Shown in pieces: positions 1 to 62,265 of a stretch of 62,265 bases of DNA (position 1 is the stretch's first letter; every line of letters begins with the position of its first letter). Source of the stretch: a virus; the IMG/VR virus record IMGVR_UViG_3300042291_000296, positions 1 to 62,265 of that record; one strand, written 5' to 3'. Both the position numbers and the translations under genes were made by a program. The notes beneath the pieces are model-generated. The model searched no databases and was not told the DNA's origin. It saw nothing but the letters and a program-made list of their open reading frames with translations.

Positions 1-48
1 GGTCCCAGACCAGCTCCGATGATTAAGGTAGTAAAGAAACCTAATTAG
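1..48 (+). CDS. Small basic protein, C-terminal fragment
   Basis: The reading frame is open from base 1 and encodes the last 15 residues (ending VVKKPN) of the protein whose complete copy lies at 61916-62095. It is partial only because the contig begins inside the terminal repeat. The function is unknown. Confidence 0.75.
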   Translation, partial: GPRPAPMIKVVKKPN

Positions 49-219
49 TGCATTTGTAAAAAAGTTGCATGAAGATACTGATATTACAGGTAGCAACACC
101 TAATATAAAGGATTATTCTGTTTACTCTATCCCAATAAATATAAATTATTCTATCAAGTGGGACTATGATTTTTTACTTTATACATCTAAAGAAGAAGAG
201 CTAAATTATCATCCTGCTT
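1..219. repeat. Left copy of the terminal direct repeat
   Basis: Bases 1-219 match 62048-62265 almost exactly. The differences are a cluster of substitutions plus a one-base length change at about 50-68, and A92 versus G, which is synonymous in the overlapping glycosyltransferase codon for Val. It covers the end of a small basic gene and the first 50 codons of the glycosyltransferase gene. This is what an assembled circular or terminally redundant phage genome shows. The mismatches suggest strain variation rather than a perfect duplicated end. Confidence 0.9.
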
Positions 220-2583: not shown

Positions 2584-4143
2584 ATGATAGTAAAACAAGT
2601 CTATTTTGGTGATGAAGGCCAAAAAAAATTAAAAAACGGCATTAAAATTATCGCTGGGGCGGTAAAGAGCACCTTGGGTGCCAGAGGTCGGACGGTGTTA
2701 ATAGAGTCAGAGAACCACGTAGGTGGTATCACCGTAACAAAGGACGGTGTGACGGTTGCAAAGTCAATCAACCTGTACGACCCGACTGAGAACTTGGCTG
2801 TAATGATGATGCGTCAGGCGGCTGACAAGACATCTACAGTAGCTGGTGACGGCACGACTACATCGATCGTGTTGGCAGAGGCCATAATCAATGCAGCAGA
2901 CAATCACGTTGACTCAAACACTAATGTGATAGAGGTGATACGTGAGATCAACGACATCACGGCATCTGTTGTGGCTAGGCTCAGTAAGATCAGCAAGAAG
3001 GTCACTGGCAAGAAGCTGTGTGACGTGGCATCGATCAGTTCAAACAACGACAAGCAGATCGGCAAGATGATCTCTGACGCATTCAGCGAGGTTGGCATGG
3101 TTACCGTTGAGAATAGCATGAACTCTGAGACACATGTAGAGATTATTAGTGGGATGAAGATAGACCGTGGATACACGTCTAAGTACTTCATCAACGACCA
3201 CAAGAAGCAGGAGTGTGTGTTAGACAATCCATACGTACTGATCACCGACCACGAGATAAACAACCTATCAAACTTAGAGTCTATACTTGCACCAATTGTT
3301 AGTCAGGGAAGGTCGTTATTGATCATAGGCACGCTTGGACAGAACGCAGTGAACACATTAAATGTGAACGTGGCACAGGGCAAGATCAAGGCGTGCAACA
3401 TCATACCACCATCGTTTGGATACAGGAAGAAGGACCTACTAGAGGACCTAGCCGTAGCACTTGGCGGTACGTACCTCTCTGAGGACACTGGAGACGACCT
3501 AACACTTATTTCTATGTCTGACCTAGGAAGGGCATCAAAGGTTATCGTAAAGAAGAACATGACGGTATTTATGAATACATCAGAGATGAAGGATGCCATC
3601 GACATGAGGGTATCTGACCTGAAGCACCAGATATGGGAGACCACAGACGCAAACGACAGAGAGTTCTTAAAGGAAAGGATTGCAAACATATCTGGAGGTG
3701 TTGGCGTTATATATGTTGGTGCACTTAGTGACATCGAGCAGAAGGAGAAGAGGGACAGGATCGATGACGCTGTGTGTGCGGTTATGGCTGCGATGGAGGA
3801 CGGGATACTTCCTGGCGGAGGTGTTGCACTACTGAACTGCTTAGACTTAGTGATGGGTGAGAGCATAGCTCAGAACATAATGTTCGATACGTTGAGCGCA
3901 CCATTTGATCAGATACTTATAAATGCAGGCAAGGACCCACACGTTATCAAGCTAGAGTTGGCAGGCATGGGCGAGGGCTATGACGTGAAGAACGAGGTGT
4001 ACGGTAACATGATGAAGATGGGCATTATAGACCCAACGAAGGTTACGAAGAACGCACTGCTTAACGCTGTATCTGTGGCAACAACAATTATGAGTACAAA
4101 CGCAATTATAACAAACATAAGAGACTATGAAGGTTCTAAATAA
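2584..4143 (+). CDS. groEL: Phage-encoded group I chaperonin, GroEL-like
   Basis: The 519-aa protein aligns by eye over the whole GroEL length. It carries STLGARGR near residue 29, TKDGVTVAKS near 58, the ATP-binding AGDGTTTSIVLAEAI near 88, and DRIDDAVCAV...LPGGGVALL near 390-415, so the nucleotide-site aspartates of the family are present. It is about 30 residues shorter than bacterial GroEL and lacks the C-terminal GGM tail. GroEL folds proteins in an ATP-driven double-ring cage; the likely client here is the phage's own capsid or another large virion protein. The groES gene follows with a 17-nt overlap, the reverse of the usual bacterial order. The gene looks less AT-rich than its neighbours. 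Confidence 0.95.
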   Translation: MIVKQVYFGDEGQKKLKNGIKIIAGAVKSTLGARGRTVLIESENHVGGITVTKDGVTVAKSINLYDPTENLAVMMMRQAADKTSTVAGDGTTTSIVLAEAIINAADNHVDSNTNVIEVIREINDITASVVARLSKISKKVTGKKLCDVASISSNNDKQIGKMISDAFSEVGMVTVENSMNSETHVEIISGMKIDRGYTSKYFINDHKKQECVLDNPYVLITDHEINNLSNLESILAPIVSQGRSLLIIGTLGQNAVNTLNVNVAQGKIKACNIIPPSFGYRKKDLLEDLAVALGGTYLSEDTGDDLTLISMSDLGRASKVIVKKNMTVFMNTSEMKDAIDMRVSDLKHQIWETTDANDREFLKERIANISGGVGVIYVGALSDIEQKEKRDRIDDAVCAVMAAMEDGILPGGGVALLNCLDLVMGESIAQNIMFDTLSAPFDQILINAGKDPHVIKLELAGMGEGYDVKNEVYGNMMKMGIIDPTKVTKNALLNAVSVATTIMSTNAIITNIRDYEGSK

Positions 4144-39600: not shown

Positions 39601-42600
39601 TAGAGCATTACAATCTATAACATGGGAAGCAGCAAGAGCTATTTTCCCTGCTAAAGAAAAAGCTAAATCTGGATACAAAGAAAAGATCTCTAACATATGG
39701 GATGAATTAGTTAGTGGAAATAAATCATTATATAAAGTTCAAGAAGAAATATTTAATCAATCACAAGACCCTAATATAACAGAGTGGTCTGAATACATAA
39801 ACATATTAAAAGATGAAAAAGCAAGAACAAATGTCAGTGGAAGAATTGTTGGATTGGAAGGGACTAGAGCCACCAATAACATGGGAGCAGTATCAGGAAC
39901 TAGTATCGGAGAATCCAAATCTTCAGGAAGAACTGGAGTATCTAGCAGAGGAGCCAAAATAAAACTCCAAAAGACCACACAAGAAACAAGAATGGACAAG
40001 GAGTCTGAGGATGTATTCAAGAAGTCATTAGATAGTGGAACAGATTGGGCCACATCTACTCAGGATGCACTAGACTACATACAGAAGTCAAATTGGTATC
40101 AAGATGCAACCGATATAGAGAGAGAACAGAAGGTAAGAGACTTTAAAGAATCTAAAAAACAGAAACTAAAGAAGGCACCATCTGTAGCTAAGATAATGGG
40201 CACGCCTAAACCAAAGATGGTTACAGTTAACGAGGCGGCTGCATTTAAAGATCAACTAAGACTAGAGGCCAAGGCAGCTAGAGAGGCTAGGGGTGACCTA
40301 AACTTTAAAAGAAAGTCGTTGTCTGATGCCATCAAGTCAATGGCTAAACTTGGAAAATTAAAGGTGAGCCAAGCGACCACAATCATCACAAGAGTTAGTA
40401 AAGTAAATCTTGATAGTTCAGTACAGGTTGACAGACTTATTGACTACGCAGCCAAAGTATTCGAGAGGGCAAACTATCAAGATAGATTAAATGATGCATT
40501 CTCTTACAAAAGGGCTATCAGAAAGTTATTAAAGACAAACAATCAGGCACAGGTTGTTGGCATGGCCAATGAGTTTACAAAGCTAGACCCATCTATGGTT
40601 GAAAATATAGAGGAATATATAGATATTGCTGAGAAAGTTAAGAAAGCAGTAGCTCCATCAAGAGCTAAAACATTTACTATTGACAACGATAATTACTTTG
40701 ACATGGTATTAAAACAAGCTACAAACATAGAGGCGGTGTCAAAATTTGTAAAAGATGAACTTGAAAAACAAGATCAACAATTAAAGGATGAGCTCTTGGC
40801 TACTAATAATGAGCTATTAGAATCTGGGTTTATATCTCGTGACATGACGGCAAAACAAATACAAGGAGTTATTGATTCAATGAAAAAGGATCCAGCATAT
40901 AAAATGGATAGCAAAGAAAAGGAAGGTTACATGATGACTTACCTATCACAAAGATTTAATTCATTGGCAGAAGTAATTTCAGACATTATAAAAACAAATC
41001 AAAATCCAGTTACTGGAGAAAGGGTAGCTATAGATCAAAAAGATGTAGCTATAATGTCAGATTTATTGAAGGTTGATCTGTCAGAAATGGGTGTCAGAGA
41101 TGCTCTTTTTATTGTTGAGGCAATGGACAACTTTATAACTAATGGAATCACTAGCAAGCTAGAGGGAGCCTTGTCTGCATACAAGGGGCAAATGGGTCTT
41201 AAAGAAGAGATAAAGTCGGGTAAGGTTGCTAGACCATTAAGGCTTTACTTTACTAAAAAAGCAGGCAGGGAGTTTGCAATTGAGTTTACACCTCTTCCAT
41301 TAATGATAGAGAGGATGTTTAATGGAGTTAAAAGTGGAATAAGTATAATGAAGTCTATGGGACTTTCTATTGTTATTAATGGTGTTAATAAGGCAAATTA
41401 TCTACACAACAAGATAATAGATGAGTACTACAACAAATTTATAAGGAAGAGTAAAACATTTCATACCCCTGAAAATGTATACGAAAGGGGTATGCTGGCC
41501 TTCTTGAAAAGAAATGTTACTGGTTCATTAGAAGAAATGAAGGCAGAGACAAATAGAAGAGTTAAAATGATAACACAAAGTATTACTACTTTAAAGAATA
41601 AAGGAGATAAATCACAAAAAGCTATGGCAGAAATTTATCAAAAAGTATTTGATAAGTTAGACGTAAGCACTGGAGACATAGACGTGATTGAATCAAGGGC
41701 ATCAAAAGAAAATAAAGATGCTGTTAACTGGTGGATAAACCAGTGGTCTAAACACTATAAAGATCTTTCTGATGTAAGTTTGTCGGTGTATAACTATGAC
41801 CTAGGAAGTGACCTTAACTATACCCCAGATAAATATAAGTTAATAAAAACTGAAGAGTTTGATCAAAAATTAATAGAAAGAAACTCATCGTTCTTGATTA
41901 GCATGGATAATTATACAGACAAAGAAAAAACAGGGGTTTTGATGCAATCAACCAGACCTAATGCTATGGAAGAAGGTAGATACCTGAGCTTTGATTTTGA
42001 TGCAAATAACTCTAACTCACTTAAGGGTGCACTAGTAGATATAAATACAGCGGCTGGAATAAGACAGATAGATGGATTTTTAAATTCAAAATTATTGGAT
42101 AAGCTGATACCAAGTACTGAAGATAGAGATGCATTAGTAATTAGAGTAAATAGATATATAAGAAGGTCTAAGGGTAAGATATTTATGCCTAAAGATTTGT
42201 ATAAGGATGTAGATTCGGTTATCAATTTTGCTGCGAGACTTGGTGTTGGTAAGGCACTAGGTGGTGTGCTACAGTCGGTAAAACAAACAATACCTATTGC
42301 AATAAGTACAGCTATAATGACAGGAAGGTTTAATATACCTAGCGTTAGTTTCAATGAGTGGCTAAACAAGACTGGCATGCCAATAGCAAATCGGGGTTTA
42401 GATTCACTGTCTGCTATAGAATCTGTAGACAGAAGACTGGACGCTAAGGCCACAGGGTTTAATAAACCATTAAAGTGGGTTCAAAAAACACAACAGCTAT
42501 ATCTAAAGTGGTTCTTATCAAAGCCAGATGTAATGATTGCAAGGATGGCATTCCAGTCATACTACTTACAGTATATGAAAGAGAGTTCTATTGACTGGGC

Positions 42601-46931: not shown

Positions 46932-47194
46932 TGCCTAAATATAGTGCCCATATTAACGACCTGTGTGTAGAACTCCATTAAATCTTCATCTGATTCATTA
47001 ACAACTCTTTTGTTTAGTGAGTAGCCCATCTTGTCTACCTCTGTAATAAAGTCATTGCCAGACTTCTTTACCTGCCTGTTGTACAGGTGTGGGTACTCAT
47101 CCCTTACATCCTCCATGAAGTCCATCATTACTGGTAAAATGGCTACCAAGCAGGCCAGCTTCTTCTCGTTGCTTATAGATTTCTTTTTCGTCAT
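46913..47194 (-). CDS. Hypothetical phage protein (93 aa)
   Basis: The 93-aa helical protein has a basic N-terminus (TKKKSISNEKK), then CLVAILPVMMDFMEDVRDEYPHLYNRQVK, and an ending MGTIFRQWLLDL. It resembles small operon proteins of Bacteroidota phages, but I do not recognise a function. It overlaps both neighbours. Confidence 0.6.
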   Translation of the reverse strand: MTKKKSISNEKKLACLVAILPVMMDFMEDVRDEYPHLYNRQVKKSGNDFITEVDKMGYSLNKRVVNESDEDLMEFYTQVVNMGTIFRQWLLDL

Positions 47195-47429
47195 TGCTTA
47201 GATTTTTAAATGAATATTTTTTTTCTGTTAACATTTCTTCTTCGGTAAAGTATGCCTGATCTTTGTGTCCAAAAACAGCAACGCTTTTCTTTAGGGAAAA
47301 GAATGCATGTATTGACATGAAACTTATACCTAACTTCTTTGCTATTTTTCGCATACTATATCCCAACATGATAAGTTCTTTTATTTCATGGTACTTGTCA
47401 AGTATCAACTTCTCTTTTGCCGTTCCCAT
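47097..47429 (-). CDS. Helix-turn-helix protein (110 aa)
   Basis: I choose ATG 47429; upstream starts would run deep into the nuclease gene. Residues about 13-45 (YHEIKELIMLGYSMRKIAKK, then LGISFMSIHAFF) form a clear helix-turn-helix of the recombinase/resolvase-like type. The rest is charged. It is probably a DNA-binding regulator. It overlaps the VRR-NUC gene by 32 nt and the next gene by 98 nt, the latter unusually long, so either this gene ends as predicted or the downstream start is later. Confidence 0.65.
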   Translation of the reverse strand: MGTAKEKLILDKYHEIKELIMLGYSMRKIAKKLGISFMSIHAFFSLKKSVAVFGHKDQAYFTEEEMLTEKKYSFKNLSNDEKEIYKQREEAGLLGSHFTSNDGLHGGCKG

Positions 47430-47661
47430 CTTGTATATACGCCTTGATTCCATGATTATGAAGTTCTTTAATTCGATAAATTTGTAGTGGTCTTGGCTTC
47501 TTGCCGTCACGCTTTACCTCTATAAACTCAACGTCAGAGTTCTTTGGTATCGCTATTAGATCAGGTATCCCTGGCTTGTTTGTCATTGATAGCTTTATAA
47601 CATAATAGCCATCAGCCTCCAGCTTCTTTATTATCTTTGCCTGTATCTGTTGCTCGGTCAT
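47398..47661 (-). CDS. VRR-NUC domain nuclease (87 aa)
   Basis: The minimal nuclease domain is complete: EQQIQAKIIKKLEADGYYVIKL, then TNKPGIPDLIAI (Asp at about 33) and FIEVKRDGKKPRPLQ (Glu, Lys and Gln of the active site). VRR-NUC enzymes of phages are standalone and act on DNA structures such as Holliday junctions. It overlaps genes on both sides, as does the whole operon. Confidence 0.88.
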   Translation of the reverse strand: MTEQQIQAKIIKKLEADGYYVIKLSMTNKPGIPDLIAIPKNSDVEFIEVKRDGKKPRPLQIYRIKELHNHGIKAYIQDGNGKREVDT

Positions 47662-49575: not shown

Positions 49576-51927
49576 TTAAAAGTTTAGTTCTGTGTTCACA
49601 TCTTTCTTGGCGATGAACTCTACCATCTTTCCCATTGCATTTCTAAATATCCTTGGCTTCTCTCCAAACTTAAAGTTTCCATATGAGTCGAGCCACTTGT
49701 AGAACTTGTTGTGGGATATCTTGTATCGTCCATAGTTGCCGTAGTCGGGGTACTCACCAACAAAATTATTATATATGTTTTGACCTATCGTTATCGACCC
49801 AAGCCTTGTGTCTACATTGTCATCAGCTGTCACCCATTCCCAAAAGTCAGTGCTGGTCTCTGCTATAAACTTGCGTGTCTTTAGGTTCATGAACTGACTC
49901 TTTATCAGCCCACTAGACAGGTATGTCTGTATGTTTTTGATCATGTAGTTGTCAAACTTAGTCCACTCAGCATTACTCCATCCAGAGAACAACATATGAC
50001 CAAACTCACTCTCAGGAGTAAACGATTTGTTGTAGTACTGCTTGAACTCTAGGTCCCACTTACGCCTCTCGAACGAGTTGCCTGCACCTTTGATCGCATA
50101 GTTTGTTGTTATGACAATCTTTGGTGCGTCCTCAAATGGGATGTGTATCTCGTCCTTGTTCTTCTTCTCTAGGGTTATACCCTCAGTAATTATACTGAAC
50201 AACCTCTCGAAGTCAAAGTTCTTACTAACGTCATCAAATACTAGTGTCTGCGTGTCTACCTGCACCCGTTGATATGGGAAGGACTTCTGGAAGCTAAATC
50301 CCTTACCGTCTATTATCACCATCTTCTTCATGTGGCTGATAGACTTAACAAATATCCCCTTGCCCGTGCCACCCTCTGGGTTGTCACTTATAACCTCGTC
50401 ATTAAGTATGACCGCAGGACAATAGCTCGCTGGCTTGTGGCTGTGCATAAGGTATCCCAGTGTAGACTCCATAGACCTCATCCTCTCAGTGCTACCACCA
50501 GATATGTTCTTTATAAAGGTGTTGAACTCACATATATCGCTTGGCGATTTTATGAAGTTACGTCCGATCTTCTGCTTCTCCCACACGTATCCGTTTAGCT
50601 CCCTGTAGTCTATTATATCTACATCGTCCTTGGTGACCTTTACAGCACAGTTGTTGTAGTATATATATGAATCGTCTACCGTGTCTACCATGAACATTGG
50701 CTCTACCTTTGACACATAGTTTAAGAACGTCTCTTGGAAGAACTTGGTGTTAACAGCAAAGAAGTTGTACACAGACATGTCGTCAATACCCAGCAGGTAC
50801 TCAAGAACAAAGTCCTTTATCATCTCCTCGTTTACGTCAGATATGGTGTTGTCAAGCACCCTAACAAATACAAAGTTATTTGACTCAGCTGGGTAGTACT
50901 TATAGAACCCATTGATCCTCAAGTACTCCCTAAACAGGTGAGGCACCAGATCAATCTTGCCCTTGCTTGTCTTTGTCCAGAATGTATTGCTGTCAGCTGT
51001 CTCGATCAAGTAGTCGATAACGTCTACATTATGATTGGCCTTGACCTCCTTCTCTGGCACACCCTTCTTAAGGTCGTTCTTTATGTTGGTTGTCTTGTCT
51101 ATGTCCTCGTAGAACTTTGTCCCATGTGATGCAATGTTCCTATACGCTGACCACACAATCGTGCCTATCTCCTTCTCCATGTCCCCATCGTCATACGACA
51201 TCAATACAGACTTGGCCTCCTCTTGTGGTATGCCAAACTCATTTAATGCTGAGGCTAGGATGAACAGGTTGTTGTTCCTCTGTCCCTTGACCATGCCGTA
51301 GCTCTTGTTCCACCATATGGTGAGCCTCCTTGTTATCTCGTTTGTGTCGTTTATAACGATCTTTGGCCTTACGTATGCAACGTCAGACGAGTCAGAGTCC
51401 ATCTCTGTCCACGTAGACGACAGCTCATTTACGTATATATTCTCGTCATATGACTCGTAGCACACACGTGAAATATTTTTACAGCTCACGTCAAACTCAT
51501 CACAATCATAATATTTTTTAAGTGCAGAGAAATACTTCTTGTGGTTCATCGGGTCTTTTGGTATGCTTACCAATACCTTTAGTCCATCACCAGATGGTGA
51601 CGTGAACACACAGTAGCTGTACTTATCAGCCATCAACTCCTCCCTCTTGTTGTACAGGTCTTGCTCATTTTTAAATCCGTCAAAGTCTATGCATATAAAT
51701 CCGCTGTGCTCTATGATCGCATTGTCTGATCGCCTGCTGAATGTACCAGAGAAACATATCGCTGGTAATTTCTTCTTCTTCTCGTTCCTCTCGTCCTTGT
51801 TAGATGAGTTCCTTACAGCCATCACCTTGTCCTTCGAGGAACCATTTCTTATCCTATCGATTGCCATTGAGACATCCTTGTAGAACGGCTCAGAGGTGTC
51901 GTTTATACTTCTGAAGTAAGTTATCAT
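49576..51927 (-). CDS. Primase-helicase (AEP/VirE-type primase plus D5-like ATPase, 783 aa)
   Basis: I choose ATG 51927, which shares ATGA with the preceding gene; an in-frame upstream Met would overlap that gene by 79 nt. The N-terminal 190 residues are of the BT4734/VirE N type seen in Bacteroidota primases: CFSGTFSRRS, ICIDFDGF near 80 and SPSGDGLKVLVSI near 110. The C-terminal ATPase has Walker A PEGGTGKGIF near 515, Walker B LVFDDV near 564, ITTNY and the arginine-finger string ERRKWDLEF near 620, as in SF3/D5-like helicases. It should prime and unwind DNA; no polymerase is encoded here, so the host supplies it. Confidence 0.88.
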   Translation of the reverse strand: MITYFRSINDTSEPFYKDVSMAIDRIRNGSSKDKVMAVRNSSNKDERNEKKKKLPAICFSGTFSRRSDNAIIEHSGFICIDFDGFKNEQDLYNKREELMADKYSYCVFTSPSGDGLKVLVSIPKDPMNHKKYFSALKKYYDCDEFDVSCKNISRVCYESYDENIYVNELSSTWTEMDSDSSDVAYVRPKIVINDTNEITRRLTIWWNKSYGMVKGQRNNNLFILASALNEFGIPQEEAKSVLMSYDDGDMEKEIGTIVWSAYRNIASHGTKFYEDIDKTTNIKNDLKKGVPEKEVKANHNVDVIDYLIETADSNTFWTKTSKGKIDLVPHLFREYLRINGFYKYYPAESNNFVFVRVLDNTISDVNEEMIKDFVLEYLLGIDDMSVYNFFAVNTKFFQETFLNYVSKVEPMFMVDTVDDSYIYYNNCAVKVTKDDVDIIDYRELNGYVWEKQKIGRNFIKSPSDICEFNTFIKNISGGSTERMRSMESTLGYLMHSHKPASYCPAVILNDEVISDNPEGGTGKGIFVKSISHMKKMVIIDGKGFSFQKSFPYQRVQVDTQTLVFDDVSKNFDFERLFSIITEGITLEKKNKDEIHIPFEDAPKIVITTNYAIKGAGNSFERRKWDLEFKQYYNKSFTPESEFGHMLFSGWSNAEWTKFDNYMIKNIQTYLSSGLIKSQFMNLKTRKFIAETSTDFWEWVTADDNVDTRLGSITIGQNIYNNFVGEYPDYGNYGRYKISHNKFYKWLDSYGNFKFGEKPRIFRNAMGKMVEFIAKKDVNTELNF

Positions 51928-52145
51928 TTGCTTAGTTCTTTTTTTAGCTTGGTTAGGTATAGTATGTTGTCCATCTGCTCCTCTATGGCGTGGTCTATCC
52001 ACTCAGTGACAGACAAATCATCTCTGTCCATAGTGTTGTTATACTTCTTAATCCCCTTGATCGATCTTTCTTTGAATCGAAAAATTACAGAGTCGACTAT
52101 AGTGTCAACCTGACCGTGTGTTGAGTTTGAATACCACATATACAT
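51924..52145 (-). CDS. Small conserved phage protein (73 aa)
   Basis: The pattern FKERSIKGIKKYNNTMDRDDLSVTEWIDHAIEEQMDNILYL, which I know in the form RSxKGxxKYGTTLxR.DLS..eWL.HaqEE.mD..lYL, is among the most common small phage proteins. It is helical and acidic, a MazG-like look without proof. It is coupled to the primase-helicase gene by ATGA and lies just after a terminator. Confidence 0.8.
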   Translation of the reverse strand: MYMWYSNSTHGQVDTIVDSVIFRFKERSIKGIKKYNNTMDRDDLSVTEWIDHAIEEQMDNILYLTKLKKELSK

Positions 52146-52163
52146 TAAAATTAAATTGATTAC

Positions 52164-52200
52164 TTAAAAAAGAGGGTAGGCCATCCATAACTGCCTACCC
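52164..52200 (-). terminator. Leftward intrinsic terminator after tRNA-Lys
   Basis: On the minus strand GGGTAGGC and GCCTACCC form a perfect 8-bp stem with an 11-nt loop, followed by TC and six T. It lies between the tRNA and the 73-aa gene, so it would reduce transcription into the primase-helicase. Confidence 0.8.
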
Positions 52201-52257
52201 AGAGTTTTTCCAAAAATGGTTGGCTAACCACAGAACCCTAACTGTACCTATGAAGTG

Positions 52258-52328
52258 AAGTCAGGACAGGAATCGAACCTGTATACTCCGACTTAAAAGG
52301 TCGGGCTTTACCATTAAGCCACCTGACT
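52258..52328 (-). tRNA. tRNA-Lys (anticodon UUU)
   Basis: The minus strand folds as a full cloverleaf: acceptor AGTCAGG/CCTGACT (7 bp), D-arm GCTT/AAGC, anticodon arm CCGAC-CTTTTAA-GTCGG with anticodon TTT, and T-arm ACAGG-TTCGATT-CCTGT. No CCA is encoded; the position after the acceptor is T, unusual as a discriminator for lysine tRNA. Lys AAA is very frequent in this AT-rich genome, which fits the choice of tRNA. Confidence 0.9.
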
Positions 52329-52339
52329 TATTAATCTAA

Positions 52340-56367: not shown

Positions 56368-56498
56368 AACTTGCAAATATATATAATGTTACCGCTGTCG
56401 CCAAACTTTTTCAACGCCTCAGCGTAGCTTAGTGCGTCTACGTTCACTCCCGAACATAGGTTCCTCGATATCTCGAAGCAGATGTGGTAGGTCGTCAT
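56364..56498 (-). CDS. Small protein (44 aa)
   Basis: The frame encodes MTTYHICFEISRNLCSGVNV followed by DALSYAEALKKFGDSGNIIY and ICKL. Both ends are ATGA overlaps with neighbours, a strong sign of coupled translation. Its strand-helix-strand layout resembles that of the gene downstream, so the two may be related small domains. Confidence 0.6.
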   Translation of the reverse strand: MTTYHICFEISRNLCSGVNVDALSYAEALKKFGDSGNIIYICKL

Positions 56499-56917
56499 AG
56501 CTCTAGCTCTATTTGGTTTATAACTTGGTACTCGTAGTCAACATCGTTGTTGTACGGGTATGCCTGTATGATGTAGTTTAGCCACTCCTTCTCGTTCTTA
56601 AACTCATGCTTCTGCATGTAGTCGAAGTGTACGTCAAACTTGCCCTCGGCAAACTCGATGGTGTACCACTCGTCAAGGTCATCAAACTGGATGGTCTTGG
56701 TCTCAACTCCGTAAGTCAGCTCGACAAAGCGGAGGATAGGATTGATTTTTGCTTTCATTGGTTTTCTATTATAGGTTAAATTAAATTCCGACATCTGATC
56801 CTTCTCCATTATTAAGGCGGAGCCGTATACATTCATCAATTCATTTGTAGTCATCTGTTCATCTCTCATTAACATTAACTGGCTGAATAGCCATTCTACT
56901 GCTGTCTGTTTTTTCAT
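56495..56917 (-). CDS. Conserved small phage protein (140 aa)
   Basis: It starts MKKQTAVEWLFSQLMLMRDE, an N-terminus common to short proteins in Bacteroidota phages, and continues with an acidic beta-rich part (FDDLDEWYTIEFAEGKFDVH). No function is known. It is the first gene on the left side of the origin-like region. Confidence 0.65.
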   Translation of the reverse strand: MKKQTAVEWLFSQLMLMRDEQMTTNELMNVYGSALIMEKDQMSEFNLTYNRKPMKAKINPILRFVELTYGVETKTIQFDDLDEWYTIEFAEGKFDVHFDYMQKHEFKNEKEWLNYIIQAYPYNNDVDYEYQVINQIELEL

Positions 56918-57263
56918 TTAGTGTTGGTTTTTAGTGATTAGTGTTGGTTTATGTTGATTTTATGTTGATTTGAAATTCTGTAACCATTGGTACTGCTAGG
57001 TTTGTGTTAGAATGTTAGTTTTTACTCTTCTATAGAGTAAAAAAAAATAAAATATATATATATAGATAGTATAGTGATACTATACTATGTAATTATTTAA
57101 TTTCACGCTAGTTTTGTCTTCAAAATCAACATTTCGACACAAAGTCAATGGTAGCAAGGCTTTCAGAAAAAAAAATCAACACTAAATCAACACGAGTCAA
57201 CACTGAAAATAGTTAAACGATTGATTGATAGGTTTTTAGGCGATTTGATTTCAACACTCACAA
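56918..57263. other. Origin-like region: AT-rich core between inverted iterons
   Basis: Left array: GTGTTGGTTT at 56921 and 56941, and ATGTTGATTT at 56951 and 56962. Right array in the opposite orientation: AAATCAACAT at 57123, AAATCAACAC at 57173 and 57184, GAGTCAACAC at 57194, ATTTCAACAC at 57248. Between them are a perfect hairpin TTTTTACTC/GAGTAAAAA near 57018-57045, a run of AT dinucleotides, and a 9-bp hairpin ATAGTATAG/CTATACTAT. This is the anatomy of an initiator-bound origin with an unwinding element. No gene was found in the region. Confidence 0.55.
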
Positions 57264-61915: not shown

Positions 61916-62095
61916 ATGAAAAATAAAGATTCCAATCGATTAACTGTAGAAACAACTAAGCCTATGTTGAAAAAAAACGTTAAGAAGACAACTACAGTTG
62001 GTAGTTTCTCAGGTAAGAAAGAGGTAAGTTTTGCTAAAAACAGTGCAGGTCCCAGACCAGCTCCGATGATTAAGGTAGTAAAGAAACCTAATTAG
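61916..62095 (+). CDS. Small basic protein (59 aa), complete copy
   Basis: The 59-residue product is rich in Lys and Thr (MKNKDSNRLTVETTKPMLKK, then NVKKTTTVGSFSGKKEVSFA) and ends KVVKKPN, the same end as at 1-48. Function unknown. It has a consensus promoter and is the first rightward gene after the control region. Confidence 0.68.
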   Translation: MKNKDSNRLTVETTKPMLKKNVKKTTTVGSFSGKKEVSFAKNSAGPRPAPMIKVVKKPN

Positions 62096-62265
62096 TATAT
62101 TTTCAAAAAAGTACATGAAGATACTGATATTACAGGTGGCAACACCTAATATAAAGGATTATTCTGTTTACTCTATCCCAATAAATATAAATTATTCTAT
62201 CAAGTGGGACTATGATTTTTTACTTTATACATCTAAAGAAGAAGAGCTAAATTATCATCCTGCTT
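62048..62265. repeat. Right copy of the terminal direct repeat
   Basis: 218 bases repeat 1-219. Compared with the left copy, the short intergenic stretch differs at several positions, including the -7 box (TATATTTT here, TGCATTTG on the left). The rest is the same apart from one synonymous change. Confidence 0.9.
62115..62265 (+). CDS. Glycosyltransferase, N-terminal fragment
   Basis: The first 50 codons of the gene at 69-770 are repeated here and run off the contig end. The amino-acid sequence is identical over the overlap. Not a separate gene in a circular unit. Confidence 0.8.
   Translation, partial: MKILILQVATPNIKDYSVYSIPININYSIKWDYDFLLYTSKEEELNYHPA

What the first reader, a model, noticed from the sequence alone, without database searches (positions are those of the whole stretch)
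56921..57257. Origin candidate with two facing iteron arrays
Four copies of RTGTTGRTTT on the left face four to five complementary-orientation copies on the right, around an AT-only core with two perfect hairpins. It sits inside the early arm beside small genes, not beside the primase, and interrupts an otherwise gapless operon.
Basis: partly seen in the sequence, partly recalled or inferred. Interest (0 to 1): 0.72.

Follow-up and report, generated by a model that had tools for sequence, protein, structure and literature searches.

The report
Conserved phage replication origin with facing repeats
A 346-base non-coding stretch in a Bacteroidota-type phage carries two sets of short repeats pointing at an AT-rich centre; it recurs in dozens of related phages and is very probably where the phage starts copying its DNA, most likely opened by the phage's own primase-helicase.

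Summary
All 7 exact RTGTTGRTTT copies in the 62-kb genome lie at 56921-57193. Four point right and three point left, around a 27-bp AT-only run and two hairpins.

The element is strongly conserved. Across 27 related elements the facing orientation is 127:21 upstream and 155:9 downstream. The repeat sequence changes between clades, but both arms change together (permutation p = 5e-5, 12 clades). Flanking genes turn over while the element stays.

Raw GC-skew has no minimum here. Codon-controlled G/(A+G) of same-strand early genes does step down at the element (0.55 to 0.39, pooled over seven genomes). An eighth genome lacks the step there.

In outgroup relatives, including MW202828, the same kind of element sits directly or about 0.7 kb upstream of the primase-helicase gene. 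That protein is the best initiator candidate shared by the genomes with the element.

Best reading: a theta-type iteron origin, bound by the C-terminal winged-helix-like domain of the BT4734/PriCT-1/DUF5906 primase-helicase. It works like P4-alpha or SaPI Rep origins. New variant of a known kind. No experiment or read depth was available.

The parts
56918..57263 (.). Whole element (non-coding gap), proposed replication origin
   Evidence: ORF map and sequence; homologous element in relatives
56921..56971 (+). Left outer iteron array: exact RTGTTGRTTT at 56921-56930, 56941-56950, 56951-56960, 56962-56971 (spacing 20, 10, 11)
57004..57023 (+). Left inner iteron pair GTGTTAGAATGTTAGTTTTT
   Evidence: conserved in relatives as the complement of AAAAAYTAACATTYTAACA
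57019..57043 (.). Hairpin II (10-bp arms, 5-nt loop); perfect only in this genome
   Evidence: not conserved
57038..57064 (.). AT-only run (T-tract and (TA)n on the gene strand), proposed melting region
   Evidence: the T-tract/(TA)n recurs in most relatives
57066..57088 (.). Hairpin I, ATAGTATAGT-GAT-ACTATACTAT; most variable part of the element, yet a palindrome in each of the nearest relatives
57121..57141 (-). Right inner iteron pair (gene strand GTGTCGAAATGTTGATTTTG)
57171..57203 (-). Right outer iteron array: exact copies 57173-57182 and 57184-57193, degenerate copy 57194-57203
57214..57226 (-). IHF-consensus-like site AATCAATCGTTTA (WATCAANNNNTTR)
   Evidence: present in 21 of 27 elements, only 5 in the whole 62-kb window
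57247..57257 (-). Outermost degenerate iteron (GTGTTGAAATC)
49576..52002 (-). Primase-helicase (BT4734-like_N, PriCT_1, DUF5906, C-terminal winged-helix-like domain), proposed initiator

Best explanation
The element is the phage's replication origin. The phage primase-helicase (49576-52002) binds the two facing arrays of about 10-bp iterons through its C-terminal winged-helix-like domain. The arrays position two helicase rings head to head around the AT-rich core, probably helped by a bend from a host IHF/HU-type protein. The core (T-tract, (TA)n, palindrome) melts, the N-terminal primase domain makes primers, and forks leave in both directions. Shown by computation: the repeats, their facing orientation, their conservation and co-evolution, independence from flanking genes, association with this primase-helicase, and a strand-composition step at the site. 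Inferred: binding by the primase-helicase (about 0.6), double-ring loading (about 0.4), IHF help (about 0.3), bidirectional start (about 0.6). The confidence given is for the claim that this is the replication origin.
For: Repeats unique to this site. Element conserved over a wide range of primase divergence while flanking genes change. Facing orientation 127:21 and 155:9. Both arms vary together between clades: same-genome similarity 9.56 of 12 against 8.37 cross-genome, permutation p = 5e-5, n = 12. In the sister branch the element is directly or about 0.7 kb upstream of the primase gene (L067-L073, L077, L147, L149, L153, L172, MW202828). The primase-helicase was found in every genome or contig compared, while the small HTH protein 47097-47510 and the flanking-gene products were not. 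AF2 of the C-terminus gives H-H-E-H-H-E-E at pLDDT about 80-95 over residues ~706-798. Codon-controlled composition of same-strand genes steps at the element: 0.55 to 0.39 pooled, left 0.52-0.71 against right 0.29-0.40 in seven genomes. No Bacteroidetes-type -7 promoter motif lies on the gene strand within the window's element. Single-protein primase-helicase initiators that bind origin repeats through a winged helix are known (P4 alpha, described in PMC4234260).
Against: No direct binding, replication or read-depth data. Foldseek gives no significant PDB match for the C-terminal model (best E 0.13; P4 origin-binding domain not among the 50 shown). Four-fold-site GC skew is inconsistent between genomes, and C/(C+T) does not change as strand asymmetry would predict. 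One of eight genomes (G016) lacks the step at the element. Genes right of the element are a different, small-gene class, so codon-usage differences could contribute.
Confidence: 0.82

Rival explanations
1. It is a transcription-control region: repeated operators for an early regulator, switching the downstream part of the early operon.
For: It sits between two parts of the early operon; the left array abuts the start codon of 56495-56917; dispersed GTGTCGTTAACGACAC palindromes before early genes in MW202828 suggest that related phages use operators.
Against: No Bacteroidetes-type promoter motif on the gene strand within it; the downstream gene is different or missing in relatives while the element stays; exact iterons occur at this one place only; a candidate HTH regulator is absent from several genomes that have the element; two symmetrical facing arrays around an AT core are unusual for operators.
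Confidence: 0.1
2. It is an origin, but recognised by a host initiator or another phage protein, not by the primase-helicase.
For: No significant fold match for the proposed DNA-binding domain; an IHF-like site suggests host proteins take part; other early proteins are also widely shared (Mre11-like 45381, helicase 48321, VRR-NUC 47398).
Against: Iteron sequence differs between phage clades and co-varies between arms, which is not expected for a fixed host protein; outgroups place the element next to the primase gene.
Confidence: 0.25
3. A packaging (pac/cos), partition or attachment site, or an RNA element.
For: Intergenic, repeated and structured.
Against: No Rfam match; terminase genes are on the other arm; the strand-composition step and the link to the primase gene do not fit.
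Confidence: 0.03

Closest known systems
Phage P4 ori and its alpha primase-helicase
   Same: Short direct repeats about 10-11 bp apart, some inverted, away from the alpha gene; single primase-helicase initiator with a winged-helix domain that binds origin repeats (stated in PMC4234260).
   Different: P4 alpha has a Toprim (bacterial-type) primase; here the primase is BT4734-like. P4 also needs a second site (crr); no second iteron cluster exists here. No sequence or significant fold match was shown.
SaPI and SCCmec Rep/Cch2 helicase origins
   Same: Iterons bound by the helicase, apparently as two hexamers for SaPI Rep (PMC7581432).
   Different: Those origins lie downstream of the helicase gene; here 5 kb upstream, or just upstream in relatives. 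In SCCmec the primase is a separate protein; here primase and helicase are one chain.
pRN1-type origins (primase + SF3 helicase + winged helix)
   Same: Archaeo-eukaryotic-type primase fused to helicase and winged-helix domain; origin stem-loop that varies in sequence but keeps its fold between conserved flanks (PMC4234260).
   Different: pRN1 has a 100-nt stem-loop and no iterons; here iterons are the conserved part and the stem-loop is short and not universal.
Iteron-type origins with an AT-rich unwinding element in general (plasmids, lambda)
   Same: Iterons plus AT-rich melting region plus IHF-like site (general knowledge).
   Different: Two facing arrays on both sides of the core rather than one array on one side; DnaA boxes were not looked for systematically.

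Membership tests
Iteron-type replication origin | Cluster of short repeats unique to one site | tested here: met
   All 7 exact copies in the genome are in the element
Iteron-type replication origin | Adjacent AT-rich unwinding region | tested here: met
   27-bp AT-only run plus AT-rich core, conserved in most relatives
Iteron-type replication origin | Strand-composition change at the site | tested here: inconclusive
   G/(A+G) step in the pooled profile and in most genomes, but four-fold GC alone is inconsistent and G016 shows no step at the element
Iteron-type replication origin | Supports autonomous replication / is the read-depth peak | not testable with these tools
   Needs experiment or raw reads
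P4-alpha / ori system | Primase-helicase with winged-helix origin-binding domain | tested here: inconclusive
   Winged-helix-like order of elements at good confidence, but no significant Foldseek match
P4-alpha / ori system | Toprim-type primase domain | tested here: not met
   Pfam BT4734-like_N and PriCT_1 instead
P4-alpha / ori system | Second cis site (crr) with the same repeats | tested here: not met
   No second cluster in the genome
pRN1-type origin | Long stem-loop as the essential, structure-conserved origin | tested here: not met
   Hairpin I short and not universal; hairpin II not conserved
pRN1-type origin | AEP-type primase, SF3-type helicase and winged helix in one protein | tested here: inconclusive
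   BT4734-like_N + PriCT_1 (below cutoff) + DUF5906 by Pfam; BT4734-like listed among AEP families in PMC5862659; winged helix by weak model only

The most novel reading that the evidence does not exclude
A previously undescribed origin type that combines P4/SaPI-like facing iterons with a pRN1-like, sequence-hypervariable palindrome in an AT core. It would be opened by one BT4734-type primase-helicase acting as sole initiator through two facing hexamers, and the origin module would have moved about 5 kb away from its initiator gene in one large clade of Bacteroidota-type phages.
Probability: 0.35. Interest if true: 0.6.

Novelty: new variant of a known kind. Interest (0 to 1): 0.46.

Why it matters
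Origins are rarely known for uncultured phages. Here one is pinned to about 350 bp in a widespread phage family, with an identifiable candidate initiator. It gives a ready test of how BT4734/DUF5906 primase-helicases find their origins: by iterons (P4, SaPI) or by stem-loops (pRN1). The paired change of both repeat arms between clades makes the DNA-recognition code of the initiator directly testable.

Tried and rejected
Plain GC skew: follows gene strand, no minimum at the element. Four-fold GC skew: too few sites, inconsistent. Hairpin II as a conserved cruciform: rejected, perfect only in the window. Hairpin I as an essential universal structure: rejected, absent or weak in several clades. 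RNA element (Rfam): no match. Sigma-70-like promoters: 10 found against 5.8 expected over the wider region, and the consensus does not suit this phylum. A second crr-like iteron cluster: none. DNA match in annotated phages for the element: only chance matches. Fold search of the C-terminal domain: no significant match. The elemo phage region (L099): no facing array found by a coarse scan. In the tree label test I marked some loci 'adjacent' without a verified element (L148, L152, L154, L157, L158, L160, L166, L170), so only the tree topology and the verified loci are used.

Full report
What is there. The window is an IMG/VR phage record. Its two ends share 219 bases at 96.8% identity, so it is probably a complete, circularly assembled genome of about 62.05 kb. 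Late genes run on the + strand (about 0-45 kb) and early genes on the - strand (about 45-62 kb). The terminase matches Flavobacterium and Cellulophaga phages and, at 68%, the circular podovirus record MW202828. The gap 56918-57263 holds four exact RTGTTGRTTT copies pointing right and three pointing left, a 27-bp AT-only run and two perfect hairpins. These are the only seven exact copies in the genome. With one mismatch allowed, 8 copies fall in the gap; shuffled versions average 0.29 and never exceed 4.

Conservation. Loci with the same flanking genes align over the whole gap. The two repeat arms, the inner pairs and several linking blocks are nearly constant, and hairpin I is the most variable part. 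In more distant phages of the window's clade the element is found about 4-8 kb upstream of the primase gene, with different neighbours. In the sister branch (L067-L073, L077) it is directly or about 0.7 kb upstream of the primase gene. It is also directly upstream of the primase gene in MW202828 and in MAG-derived loci L147, L149, L153 and L172. The primase tree puts the displaced-origin phages in one 34-row clade with 100/100 support, so a single relocation is the simplest reading, although the root was placed at the midpoint and not every row has a verified element.

Two arms, one reader. Counting RTGTYR in 27 elements, the arm upstream of the core has 127 facing and 21 opposite, and the downstream arm 155 facing and 9 opposite. 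The repeat differs between clades, for example GTGTTGATTT, ATGTTGGTTT, GTGTTRACTTT, TGTCGRTTT and TGTCGCTG. Within a genome the two arms resemble each other more than arms of different genomes do: 9.56 against 8.37 matching bases of 12, permutation p = 5e-5 for 12 clade representatives. This is what a shared DNA-binding protein would impose, although local gene conversion between arms could contribute.

Strand composition. Raw GC skew changes sign only where gene orientation changes. Early genes on both sides of the element lie on the same strand, so they can be compared directly. At two-fold codons, G/(A+G) is 0.52-0.71 on the downstream side and 0.29-0.40 on the upstream side in seven genomes, and 0.71 against 0.58 in the eighth. 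In 1-kb bins pooled over seven genomes it drops from 0.548 to 0.389 at the element. Two genomes (G002, G011) show little change in the bins right at the element, and G016 shows none there. Four-fold GC and C/(C+T) do not give the same signal, so this is support, not proof.

Which protein. The primase-helicase at 49576-52002 has Pfam BT4734-like_N and DUF5906, and PriCT_1 below cutoff. It was found in every genome and contig compared. The products of genes flanking the element and the small HTH protein were not. In L077 the only other early protein found is the Mre11-like phosphoesterase. The C-terminal ~95 residues are predicted with good confidence as a winged-helix-like order of helices and strands. 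Foldseek against the PDB gave no significant match, so this is a lead. P4 alpha binds its origin repeats with such a domain, and pRN1 ORF904 carries one (PMC4234260). Helicases of SaPI and SCCmec bind iterons, SaPI Rep apparently as two hexamers (PMC7581432).

How it probably works. The primase-helicase binds both arms and forms two facing rings. A host IHF/HU-type protein may bend the DNA: a WATCAANNNNTTR site is in 21 of 27 elements, against 5 in the whole window. The AT core melts, primers are made and two forks leave. The binding, ring and IHF steps are inferred.

Hairpins. Hairpin I keeps a palindrome with changed sequence in the nearest relatives, but in this AT-rich setting the energy z-scores are modest (-0.5 to -2.3). 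Stronger versions occur in L051, L052 and L089 (z -4 to -6), and several clades have none. Hairpin II is perfect only in the window. A cruciform is therefore optional, not defining.

Known or new. It works like a P4 or SaPI origin. It is not filed as a member of the P4 or pRN1 families: the Toprim primase and crr features (P4) and the long stem-loop feature (pRN1) were tested and not met. I found no description of this origin in the open papers searched. It is a new variant of the iteron-origin kind.

Noticed in passing
window 52146-52339 (- strand): A second gap, just upstream of the primase gene, holds a tRNA-Lys (TTT) gene at 52257-52328 followed by a ~100-nt segment ending in a strong terminator-like hairpin (GGGTAGGC...GGCCTACCC-TCTTTTTT). 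The segment after the tRNA recurs in L003, L005, L007 and, in altered form, L064 and L076; several relatives appear to have other tRNA-like sequences there (not scanned).
   Followed up: partly
MW202828.1 43745-55154 (locus L098): Fourteen identical copies of the palindrome GTGTCGTTAACGACAC, mostly in or near the gaps before early genes; they look like dispersed operators (a gene annotated as repressor lies at 40229-40705).
   Followed up: no
window 1-219 and 62048-62265: The two ends overlap by 219 bases at 96.8% identity, suggesting a circular genome whose assembly ends were not merged, although no exact end repeat is present.
   Followed up: partly
window 2584-4143 (+): A GroEL-like chaperonin gene (phrog_5725, E 3e-129) in the phage late arm; MW202828 is also annotated with groEL and a 10-kDa chaperonin subunit.
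   Followed up: no
L158, L160, L166, L170 (upstream of primase): More distant Bacteroidota loci carry GTGTTGCG/CGCAACAC repeat arrays upstream of related primase-helicase genes, partly back to back instead of facing.
   Followed up: no
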